Positions 23,621-26,341 of a stretch of DNA of 64,000 nucleotides are shown piece by piece (the stretch's first letter is position 1; each line of letters opens with the position of its first letter). Source of the DNA: Rhizobium rhizogenes (lineage in GTDB: Bacteria; Pseudomonadota; Alphaproteobacteria; Rhizobiales; Rhizobiaceae); contig NZ_CP019701.2 of assembly GCF_002005205.3 (NCBI RefSeq), positions 1,860,001 to 1,924,000 of the forward strand, read 5' to 3'. The position numbers and the translations under genes were made by a program. The notes beneath the pieces are model-generated. The model did no database searches. It was not told where the DNA came from and worked only from the letters and a program-made list of their open reading frames with translations.

Positions 23621-25075
23621 TTATTCGAATAATCTTATAAACTCCATATCTTTTTTGAATCGGAGAATTTCCCGCTCCTTCGCCAGCGCATCCGGCAGGC
23701 GCAGCAGATAGGATGGATGCACCGTGACAAAAAGCGTCCGCCCCTCCTGCATGGGAAGAGGACGGCCACGAAGCTCGGTGAGCTTCTCCTTGCCGCCGGT
23801 CAACGCATAGAGCGCGGTCGCACCCATGGCGACGATGAGCTTCGGTTGAACCAGCGCGATTTCCTGATTGAGCCACCAGCGGCATTGCTGCACTTCGCCC
23901 GCATCCGGCCGCTGGTGGATGCGCCGCTTGCCGCGTGTCTCATATTTGAAATGCTTGACAGCATTGGTGACGTAAAGCTGTCTGCGTTCCACCCCGATCT
24001 CACCAAGCGTCCGGTCAAACAGCCGGCCTGCGGGGCCGACGAGAGGTTGCCCGGCAAGATCCTCGTGGTCACCGGGCTGTTCGCCGACGATCATGACATC
24101 CGCATTTTCCGGCCCCTCGCCGAAAACCGTCTGCGTCGCCCTGCAATGCAGGGGGCATCGCGTACATTGGTCAGCCTGCCGCTTCAATGAGGAAAGCCCG
24201 TCGGCTGGGGCCGGTGGGGACACTTCCCGCGCCGCGGCCGCCACGGCCTGCAAACGATGGTGAAACGGCTGCGGCTGGCTTGCCTGCCTGGCCGCCATGT
24301 CGAGCACCCGTGCTTCCGCACCGAGAACAAGGCTGGGAATGAGTTCCGCTTCAGGCAGGTTCTTCCAGTATTTCTTCGGCATCTCCGCCGTCATCGCCTT
24401 GATTTTCAGGCGAGCCGGATTGAAAATATTGGCATAATAGGTCCGCCAGAGGTCATCCGTTTCATCCGTCAAATCGGGTTTGACTGCCGCCTCCCGCGAC
24501 GTCTGCAGCACGCTTCCGTCCCATCGCGCCGACCCTTTCGGCGTCGCGATCAACCAGTCCATGTCGGTGAAGCGCCGCTGGAAAAACGGCGCCGCACGCT
24601 CGACGATGAAATGATCCGGCTCGAACCAGGCGACAAAGCGCCGTCGCCCGCCCTGTCCCTGCGGCAACGGCAATTCCTTGAAACGAACGAAGGCCGTCAT
24701 CTTGTGACAATCGCGGCGAACGGATTTTTCGAGCAGTCGCGCCTGCGAAACATCCGCATCGGACTTGAACTGCAGCAGGGCGCGATCCTGTCCCAGCCGC
24801 CACAACAGCCGGTAAAGCAGCGCGAAACGACCCCGATCACCGTGGCAGATCACAGCCTGCGCCAGTGCCACGAAAGAGGCGGGAACAGAAACCCGGGCAG
24901 CATCCGCCGACGCCACCGGCAAGGGCTCGCCGGTACAATCCAGAAGTCCGGCCCCGTCATCGCGCAACCGCCAGTCAATTGCCTCGGGCGGTATGCTGGC
25001 GGCAAGCGCCGCGCGCGCGGCATCGCGCCACTCGCCGAAATCACCCCGCCCTTCGAGAACCGGGCCATATGTCAC
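23621..25075 (-). CDS. udgX: DUF4130/TIGR03915 - UdgX fusion, uracil-DNA binding protein
   Basis: A 484-aa fusion. The N-terminal half (about 1-250) is a DUF4130/TIGR03915 domain of unknown function, containing MPKKYWKNLPEA near its end. The C-terminal half (about 285-480) is a uracil-DNA glycosylase superfamily domain with Cys-rich iron-sulfur elements (CTRCPLHC), motif A GEQPGDHED and the KRRIH loop at 383-387. In characterised UdgX this loop's His attaches covalently to the DNA abasic site after uracil removal, giving an irreversible complex; here that is His387. It overlaps the upstream radical SAM gene by four bases, so the two are translationally coupled. TIGR03915/TIGR03916 pairs are known as a conserved two-gene operon with unresolved chemistry. 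Confidence 0.9.
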   Translation of the reverse strand: MTYGPVLEGRGDFGEWRDAARAALAASIPPEAIDWRLRDDGAGLLDCTGEPLPVASADAARVSVPASFVALAQAVICHGDRGRFALLYRLLWRLGQDRALLQFKSDADVSQARLLEKSVRRDCHKMTAFVRFKELPLPQGQGGRRRFVAWFEPDHFIVERAAPFFQRRFTDMDWLIATPKGSARWDGSVLQTSREAAVKPDLTDETDDLWRTYYANIFNPARLKIKAMTAEMPKKYWKNLPEAELIPSLVLGAEARVLDMAARQASQPQPFHHRLQAVAAAAREVSPPAPADGLSSLKRQADQCTRCPLHCRATQTVFGEGPENADVMIVGEQPGDHEDLAGQPLVGPAGRLFDRTLGEIGVERRQLYVTNAVKHFKYETRGKRRIHQRPDAGEVQQCRWWLNQEIALVQPKLIVAMGATALYALTGGKEKLTELRGRPLPMQEGRTLFVTVHPSYLLRLPDALAKEREILRFKKDMEFIRLFE

Positions 25076-26304
25076 AACAGCGACAATTGTTCGGGCTGCG
25101 GCGCAAACATCGCCCGCAGATCCGGCCGTTCGGTCAGCTTGCCGGGTGTCCAGCCCTCCGCCACGATAAAGGCTTTCACCTTCTTGAGGGACACGCCGAA
25201 GCGGGCGATATCCTCCAGCCGCAACCGGCGGAAGCGTCGCGACGACAGGATGGAGGCGACCGTCTTCGTACCGAAACCCGGCACGCGCAGCAGCATCTCC
25301 CGATCCGCCACGTTGACATCCACCGGGAAACGCTCGCGATGTTTCAGCGCCCAGGCAAGCTTCGGATCGATATCGAGATCGAGCATGCCATCACCGCCAG
25401 CCGCGGTTATCTCGCCAATGTCGAAACCGTAAAAACGGTAAAGCCAGTCGGCCTGATAAAGCCTGTGCTCGCGCATCAGGGGCGGCTTGATCAGCGGCAG
25501 GTTCTTTGAGGAATCCGGAATGGGGCTGAAGGCCGAATAATAGACGCGCCGCAAACCGTAACTGCCATAAAGCCGGGCGCTGGTGGAGAGAATGGTGCTG
25601 TCATCAGCACCGTCCGCGCCGACGATCATCTGCGTGCTCTGCCCGGCGGGCGCGAAGCGCTTGGTCCGGCGCGTGCGTACCGTCGGCTCCCCCGCTTCCT
25701 CGATCTTCAGGCGTATATCGGCCATGGAGCGGCGAATATTGGCAGGCTGCTTTTCCGGCGCGAAACGGCCGATGCCGCTATCGGTGGGCAATTCGATATT
25801 GATCGACAGCCGGTCCGCGTAAAGCCCCGCCTCCTCTATGAGTTTCGGCGATGCTTCGGGAATGGATTTCAGGTGGATATAGCCCCGAAAACCATGCGTG
25901 ACACGCAACTCCCGCGCCACACGCACCATCTCTTCCATCGTGTGATCTGAGGAACGGATGATGCCGGAGGACAAAAACAGTCCCTCGATATAGTTGCGCC
26001 GGTAAAATTCCAGCGTCAGCCACACCACCTCCTCGGCGGTGAACCGTGCCCTCTCCACATTGCTGGAGGAGCGGTTGATGCAATAGGCGCAATCGTAAAT
26101 GCAGAAATTGGTGAGCAGGATTTTCAGGAGCGAAATGCAGCGCCCATCCGGCGCATAGGCATGGCATATGCCCGAGCCCTCCGTGGAGCCCAGCCCGCCT
26201 GACGCTGCGGAGTTGCGTTTCACCGTGCCGCTCGACGCACAGGACGCATCGTATTTCGCCGCGTCAGAGAGAATGGCCAGTCGCTGCCTGATTGACTTCT
26301 TCAT
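25072..26304 (-). CDS. Putative DNA modification/repair radical SAM protein (TIGR03916)
   Basis: Radical SAM enzyme of about 410 aa. The [4Fe-4S] motif CxxxCxxC is intact (NFCIYDCAYC, Cys68/72/75 from this start), and the N-terminal AKYDASCASSG and GICHAYAPDGRC elements are typical of TIGR03916. The C terminus has a helix-hairpin-helix-like segment (NVADREMLLRVPGFGTKTVASIL), which suggests DNA contact. The reaction is unknown. I chose the ATG at 26304 (MKKSIRQRLAIL): the earlier ATG at 26328 would place a LexA operator and probable -10 box inside the gene. If so, the transcript start falls within a few bases of the ATG, implying a nearly leaderless mRNA. It is first gene of the operon with udgX. 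Confidence 0.88.
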   Translation of the reverse strand: MKKSIRQRLAILSDAAKYDASCASSGTVKRNSAASGGLGSTEGSGICHAYAPDGRCISLLKILLTNFCIYDCAYCINRSSSNVERARFTAEEVVWLTLEFYRRNYIEGLFLSSGIIRSSDHTMEEMVRVARELRVTHGFRGYIHLKSIPEASPKLIEEAGLYADRLSINIELPTDSGIGRFAPEKQPANIRRSMADIRLKIEEAGEPTVRTRRTKRFAPAGQSTQMIVGADGADDSTILSTSARLYGSYGLRRVYYSAFSPIPDSSKNLPLIKPPLMREHRLYQADWLYRFYGFDIGEITAAGGDGMLDLDIDPKLAWALKHRERFPVDVNVADREMLLRVPGFGTKTVASILSSRRFRRLRLEDIARFGVSLKKVKAFIVAEGWTPGKLTERPDLRAMFAPQPEQLSLL

Positions 26305-26310
26305 AATAAT

Positions 26311-26341
26311 GTTCACTATATGTTCCATTGAAAAATGTCAA
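26311..26341 (-). promoter_or_regulatory. LexA (SOS) box and promoter of the radical SAM-udgX operon
   Basis: GTTCACTATATGTTC at 26311-26325 is a perfect GTTC-N7-GTTC, the alphaproteobacterial LexA operator. On the minus strand a perfect -35 TTGACA (26341-26336) is followed, at 15 to 17 bases, by TATAGT or TAGTGA. The operator therefore covers the -10 region, where a bound repressor would block polymerase. The match and position are seen directly; SOS control is inferred. Confidence 0.8.

What the first reader, a model, noticed from the sequence alone, without database searches (positions are those of the whole stretch)
23621..26341. SOS-type operon pairing a radical SAM protein with a DUF4130-UdgX fusion
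A perfect alphaproteobacterial LexA operator (GTTC-N7-GTTC) covers the -10 region of a two-gene operon. The first gene is a radical SAM protein with intact CxxxCxxC and a C-terminal helix-hairpin-helix. The second is a fusion ending in a UdgX domain with the KRRIH loop. Known: UdgX captures uracil-DNA covalently through that His, and TIGR03915/TIGR03916 occur as a gene pair without known chemistry. Inference: DNA damage turns on a system in which one protein tags or traps a damaged base and the radical SAM enzyme repairs or processes it.
Basis: partly seen in the sequence, partly recalled or inferred. Interest (0 to 1): 0.85.

Follow-up and report, generated by a model that had tools for sequence, protein, structure and literature searches.

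The report
SOS-controlled radical-SAM, DUF4130 and UdgX operon
A two-gene operon with a conserved SOS-repressor site pairs a radical enzyme with an uncharacterised protein that carries an optional uracil-capturing domain; the gene pair and its SOS control were already in print, but comparison of genomes shows which parts belong together, which sharpens how its unknown repair chemistry could be tested.

Summary
A TIGR03916 radical SAM gene (25072-26304, minus) overlaps by 4 bases a DUF4130-UdgX fusion (23621-25075) with KRRIH and His387; a GAACN7GAAC box ends 6 bases before the start codon. Window-wide one exact box is chance level (3 found, 2.06 expected), but the box recurs upstream in 78 of 80 relatives, with 6 matches in the other 704,277 bases of those loci; two relatives outside the class carry CTGTN8ACAG instead. 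LexA control is very likely, and not new: a 2021 paper reports SOS control of a UDG-COG4277 pair. Radical SAM and DUF4130 form the core (all 53 radical SAM genomes of 299 sampled have DUF4130); UdgX is separable: missing from 13 of the 53, and kept in five genomes of one genus where the core is deleted. Best reading: a LexA-controlled repair module whose radical chemistry needs DUF4130, with UdgX an optional capture domain. Substrate and chemistry are unknown.

The parts
26336..26341 (-). possible -35 element TTGACA (inferred)
   Evidence: sequence; TTGAC 5-25 bases before the box in 40 of 78 relatives, most often at -16 (26 occurrences)
26311..26325 (-). LexA-type operator GAACATATAGTGAAC; holds the possible -10 TATAGT (26315-26320)
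   Evidence: exact box upstream in 78 of 80 relatives
25072..26304 (-). radical SAM protein, 410 aa, TIGR03916
   Evidence: AlphaFold2 model mean pLDDT 85.9, closest folds lipoyl synthase and HydE
26080..26103 (-). CxxxCxxC (C68, C72, C75) of the SAM-binding 4Fe-4S cluster
   Evidence: invariant in 49 aligned sequences
26137..26241 (-). conserved C22, C47-H48, C56: possible second metal or Fe-S site (inferred)
   Evidence: invariant in 49, 90% or more of 54; residues 22-46 have pLDDT under 50
25234..25323 (-). C-terminal helix-hairpin-helix (residues 328-357), probable
   Evidence: sub-cut-off Pfam hits, weak profile hits to ComEA and RuvA
25072..25075 (-). 4-base overlap of the two genes
23621..25075 (-). 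DUF4130-UdgX fusion, 484 aa, GTG start
24341..25075 (-). DUF4130 domain (TIGR03915), residues 1-245
   Evidence: model mean pLDDT 91.5
24350..24394 (-). conserved C-terminal motif of DUF4130 (residues 228-242, MxxEMPKKYWKNLPE), possible docking site for the radical SAM partner (inferred)
   Evidence: lost in 2 of 3 relatives that lack the radical SAM gene
23636..24214 (-). UdgX domain, residues 288-480
23915..23929 (-). KRRIH loop, residues 383-387, His387
   Evidence: aligned with solved UdgX; His at this place in 68 of 68 UdgX-bearing relatives
24071..24085 (-). GEQPG motif, residues 331-335
23699..23719 (-). HPSYLLR motif, residues 453-459

Best explanation
This is a LexA-controlled DNA-repair module. 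Shown by comparison: radical SAM protein and DUF4130 form a co-inherited core, adjacent and in one direction, under a conserved LexA-type site; UdgX is a domain fused to that core in many Proteobacteria, lost several times, and able to persist alone. Inferred: LexA is cleaved on DNA damage and the operon is transcribed, probably from a start at or within a few bases of the ATG, so with almost no leader; the radical SAM enzyme, brought to DNA by its helix-hairpin-helix, uses a 5'-deoxyadenosyl radical, perhaps with a second metal site (C22, C47, H48, C56), to change or remove a lesion; DUF4130 is its partner, DNA-binding or lesion-presenting, docking through the conserved C-terminal motif; UdgX, where present, caps uracil or abasic sites and so holds the complex at, or protects, the damaged stretch. 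The lesion is unknown.
For: LexA site in 78 of 80 relatives, 6 matches in the other 704,277 bases, and in 62 of 70 loci of other searches (the window's own included), with the other LexA motif CTGTN8ACAG in two of the eight misses. Partner just downstream in 80 of 80. Phylum sample of 299: radical SAM in 53, DUF4130 in all 53 of these; class sample of 289: 18 and 18, 17 shared. UdgX over its cut-off in only 40 of the 53. At least 6 changes of the UdgX state on a radical SAM tree of 125 labelled rows, 3 forced by well-supported branches. Five genomes of one genus have lost radical SAM and nearly all of DUF4130 but kept UdgX behind the same upstream flank, with at least three kinds of junction; in G388 the LexA box now lies just before the UdgX frame. 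Bacteroidota and Fusobacteriota relatives have radical SAM and DUF4130 without UdgX. DUF4130 that lost its partner has also lost the C-terminal motif in 2 of 3.
Against: No biochemistry or expression data. LexA binding is inferred from sequence. DUF4130 persists without radical SAM in G508, G524 and G592, so dependence is not absolute. The second metal site is not seen in the model (pLDDT under 50 at residues 22-46). The helix-hairpin-helix is below Pfam's cut-off. Two genomes of the window's own genus (G007, G013) lack the core and UdgX. Eight of 70 loci lack the alphaproteobacterial box, one of them (L028) in the same class. In G388 the first ATG after the box is out of frame with UdgX, whose frame opens with a GTG.
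Confidence: 0.58

Rival explanations
1. One reading: UdgX captures a damaged base covalently and the radical SAM enzyme repairs or resolves the protein-DNA crosslink.
For: Fusion and operon in the window; the loop His is conserved in 68 of 68 UdgX-bearing relatives.
Against: 13 of 53 radical SAM genomes have no UdgX over the cut-off anywhere; 12 of 52 UdgX genomes lack the radical SAM protein, counting G508 and G524, which keep DUF4130, and G388, which keeps a remnant of it.
Confidence: 0.1
2. The module serves mutagenesis or damage tolerance (with error-prone polymerases) rather than repair of a lesion, as suggested for DUF4130 in 2013.
For: PMC3765255 figure legend calls DUF4130 a predicted mutagenesis-related enzyme.
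Against: None found here: the neighbours were not scanned for polymerase genes.
Confidence: 0.15
3. The enzyme writes a DNA modification (a mark) during SOS rather than removing damage.
Against: LexA control is typical of repair (recalled); no modification-sensing partner was looked for.
Confidence: 0.1
4. A spore-photoproduct-lyase-like enzyme that reverses a thymine dimer.
For: The 2013 paper calls the associated radical SAM proteins SplB-like.
Against: At E 0.01 no other NCBIfam model matched the window's protein except HydE, 16 bits against a cut-off of 254.6; no conserved Cys after C75 in 49 sequences, whereas spore photoproduct lyase needs a hydrogen-donor Cys (recalled).
Confidence: 0.07

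Closest known systems
TIGR03916 / COG4277 radical SAM (rSAM_link_UDG) with TIGR03915 / DUF4130
   Same: Both window proteins score far above the family cut-offs; adjacent pair, as in the relatives.
   Different: Nothing at family level. That COG4277 is TIGR03916 is recalled, from no call.
SOS-regulated COG1573-COG4277 operon (PMC8565304, passages seen)
   Same: Two-gene operon of a UDG and a COG4277 protein under LexA; that paper cites earlier reports in Verrucomicrobia and Alphaproteobacteria.
   Different: That paper reads it as UDG-based base excision repair; the genomes here point to radical SAM plus DUF4130 as the core.
UdgX (PDB 6ail and others; M. smegmatis, source recalled and from PMC10359453)
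   Same: GEQPG, KRRIH and HPS motifs, E 7e-46.
   Different: Here fused behind DUF4130; the UdgX chains listed have 205-229 residues, with no room for it.
Spore photoproduct lyase (SplB)
   Same: Radical SAM enzyme linked to DNA damage.
   Different: No such family match was listed; no conserved downstream Cys.
RecJ / DHH-DHHA1 phosphoesterases, against DUF4130

Membership tests
TIGR03916 radical SAM | score over the curated cut-off 343.5 | tested here: met
   568.9 bits
TIGR03916 radical SAM | CxxxCxxC cluster motif | tested here: met
   C68, C72, C75, invariant in 49
TIGR03915 / DUF4130 | score over the curated cut-off | tested here: met
   213.2 against 112.25; PF13566 132 against 27
UdgX | TIGR03914 score over cut-off and GEQPG, KRRIH, HPS motifs | tested here: met
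   337.5 against 189.95; motifs at 331, 383, 453
UdgX | covalent capture of uracil-DNA through the loop His | not testable with these tools
   needs purified protein
Alphaproteobacterial LexA regulon | GTTCN7GTTC-type box in the promoter, conserved in relatives | tested here: met
   78 of 80; 62 of 70 loci of other searches
Alphaproteobacterial LexA regulon | LexA binding and induction by DNA damage | not testable with these tools
   needs footprinting and RNA measurement
Spore photoproduct lyase | match to an SPL family model | tested here: inconclusive
   none among NCBIfam hits at E 0.01; presence of an SPL model in the library was not checked
Spore photoproduct lyase | conserved hydrogen-donor Cys after the cluster motif (recalled) | tested here: not met
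   no invariant or nearly invariant Cys after C75 in 49 sequences
DHH-DHHA1 superfamily (DUF4130) | shared fold | tested here: inconclusive
DHH-DHHA1 superfamily (DUF4130) | sequence-profile relation to RecJ | tested here: not met
   hhalign probability 0.2% against 20 RecJ proteins; no Pfam DHH match in 53 members

The most novel reading that the evidence does not exclude
The radical SAM-DUF4130 pair is a second, widespread class of radical DNA-lesion repair enzyme besides spore photoproduct lyase, induced by SOS from Bacteroidota to Alphaproteobacteria; DUF4130 is a catalytically reduced RecJ-like (DHHA1-type) DNA-end or gap binder that docks on the radical enzyme, and UdgX is a later add-on that clamps abasic or uracil sites next to the lesion.
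Probability: 0.2. Interest if true: 0.85.

Novelty: new member of a known kind. Interest (0 to 1): 0.5.

Why it matters
Two open questions meet here: what UdgX does in cells (PMC10359453 says its precise physiological role remains largely unknown) and what the radical SAM-DUF4130 pair does to DNA. The comparison separates them: deletions of the core can be studied in species without UdgX, and UdgX in species that lost the core. If the chemistry is repair, it would be a widely distributed radical repair enzyme for which I found no substrate in print (searches under Tried and rejected).

Tried and rejected
Radical SAM activity on UdgX crosslinks as the main function: disfavoured because the two parts separate in both directions. 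A DHH/RecJ identity for DUF4130: the fold search is suggestive but within noise, RecJ profile comparison and Pfam gave nothing; kept only as part of the novel reading. The second metal site could not be checked in the model. Solved-structure profile searches gave no relative of DUF4130 (best E 0.32). Neighbouring genes were not scanned for polymerases or modification genes. Two wide protein searches were used only to see the families' names; the listed best 120 of 8000 are nearly all close relatives. Papers: ten searches used. 'UdgX' with 'radical SAM' in one paper: none; DUF4130: 1 paper; COG4277: 1 paper; TIGR03914-03916: 1 paper, naming only TIGR03914 (listing only); a fitness-screen search found none. 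Papers seen by passages only: PMC3765255, PMC8565304, PMC9380542, PMC12700426, PMC6473078, PMC10359453, PMC10776899, PMC12907096. The earlier reports of 2004, 2008 and 2016 are not held, so they are known here only as cited by PMC8565304. Other LexA-type boxes of the genome were looked at in seven stretches and not pursued further than lexA, ssb and two unknown genes.

Full report
What is there. On the minus strand, a box GAACATATAGTGAAC (26311-26325) ends 6 bases before the ATG (26304) of a 410-residue radical SAM protein of family TIGR03916, which overlaps by 4 bases a 484-residue fusion of DUF4130 (TIGR03915) and UdgX (TIGR03914).

Is the box real? A single exact match proves nothing in the window (3 found, 2.06 expected) and the genome has 170 (74 forward, 96 reverse; 74 for the reversed control). 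The two others (L088, L089) show GAACAAAACGTGAAT, one base off. The rest of the same 80 loci hold 6 matches in 704,277 bases, 0.002 per 250 bases. Of 70 loci from other searches (one is the window's own, 21 more are from its genus, and some repeat species of the 80), 62 have the box; of the eight misses, two (L158, L161, same phylum but other class) instead have CTGTN8ACAG, the LexA motif of other Proteobacteria (motif name recalled), and six (L028, L136, L154, L180, L181, L183) have neither. A site that is kept while its motif changes with the repressor is strong evidence for LexA control. The genome has lexA, with an exact box upstream, and one before ssb; recA has only one-mismatch sites. 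A TTGAC lies 5-25 bases before the box in 40 of 78 relatives. With TATAGT inside the box, transcription would begin at or near the ATG; this is inference.

What belongs together. In an even sample of 299 genomes of the phylum (the window's included), 53 have the radical SAM protein over its cut-off and all 53 have DUF4130. DUF4130 occurs without it in four: G388 (a remnant), G508, G524 and G592. In the class sample of 289 the counts are 18 and 18, 17 shared; the two odd ones are a contig end (G085) and a genome where the radical SAM gene is a fragment (G222). UdgX over its cut-off is in 52 of the 299, in 40 of the 53 with the core; 13 have the core but no UdgX: G292, G346, G365, G391, G398, G491, G498, G504, G532, G544, G567, G591, G602 (intersections made by hand from the listed rows). 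Of the 80 named relatives, 68 have UdgX fused, 11 have DUF4130 alone and 1 (L070) is cut by a contig end; the loop His is there in all 68, and nine of the 11 keep the exact box. Among nine genomes with unfused DUF4130 that were checked by handle, two (G073, G300) have a UdgX elsewhere and seven have only weaker UDG matches with GEAPG and a gap where the KRRIH loop would be. Parabacteroides, Spirosoma and Fusobacterium relatives have radical SAM and DUF4130 with no UdgX domain found. A Gemmatirosa relative had no DUF4130 found within the stretch fetched. On a radical SAM tree of 127 rows (125 labelled; L152 and L001 left unlabelled because their flanks were cut; labels of L032, L153 and L156 set; left out were the window's genus, repeats, fragments, L070 and the Gemmatirosa row), fused UdgX needs at least 6 changes, 3 forced by well-supported branches (quick method; long branches at the root make the first gain uncertain).

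A natural experiment. G388, G370, G374, G480 and G580 belong to the same genus code as G435, whose operon is intact. All five keep UdgX behind the same upstream flank, but lack the radical SAM gene and nearly all of DUF4130. The junctions differ: matches to the intact locus end at 844/2699, 913/2668, 783/2790, 578/2790 and 583/2786, at least three kinds. In G388 the box stands just before the UdgX frame, though the first ATG after it is out of that frame; the other four have no exact box in the stretch. UdgX thus has a use without the core. Conversely, in G508, G524 and G592 the radical SAM gene is gone, the box and DUF4130 remain, and the otherwise conserved C-terminal motif of DUF4130 is lost in two of the three. 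This suggests, on very few cases, that the motif docks on the radical SAM protein.

Known or new. PMC3765255 (passages) describes DUF4130 as associated with SplB-like radical SAM proteins and UDGs, in a paper on SOS gene neighbourhoods. PMC8565304 (passages) reports a LexA-linked COG1573-COG4277 operon in Bacteroidetes and cites its SOS control in Verrucomicrobia and Alphaproteobacteria. PMC9380542 (passage) lists one LexA-bound radical SAM gene in Streptomyces, family not stated. So pair and regulation are known; I found no paper on its chemistry in the searches listed under Tried and rejected.

Verdict. A real, conserved, ordinary-in-kind SOS operon with unknown chemistry. The repair reading is likely but inferred; the crosslink-processing reading is disfavoured.

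Noticed in passing
L205-L209 (G388, G370, G374, G480, G580): Deletion series in one genus: radical SAM and most of DUF4130 gone, UdgX kept, differing junctions; in G388 the LexA box now precedes the UdgX frame.
   Followed up: yes
L211, L212, L213 (G524, G592, G508): DUF4130 without radical SAM but with the LexA box; the C-terminal motif is lost in two of the three.
   Followed up: partly
L194 and L195 (G073, G300): Genomes with unfused DUF4130 that carry a separate UdgX with KRRLH elsewhere.
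   Followed up: partly
L218:1915-2134: An identical box GAACATATAGTGAAC 31 bases (start to start) before a 62-residue frame with no Pfam match: possible small SOS gene in the same genome.
   Followed up: partly
L220:1888-2373: An exact LexA-type box overlapping the start of a 158-residue DUF5680 frame.
   Followed up: partly
L156:2636-3079 and L001:4249-4776: In some relatives a hemerythrin-domain gene follows the radical SAM gene; in G548 and G536 DUF4130 lies some kilobases further on.
   Followed up: partly
L025/L026 (G010): Radical SAM gene broken near its C-terminal end in one genome of the window's genus; G007 and G013 lack the operon.
   Followed up: no
L001: A contig filed as viral carries the radical SAM gene with a LexA box; it may be a bacterial fragment.
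   Followed up: no
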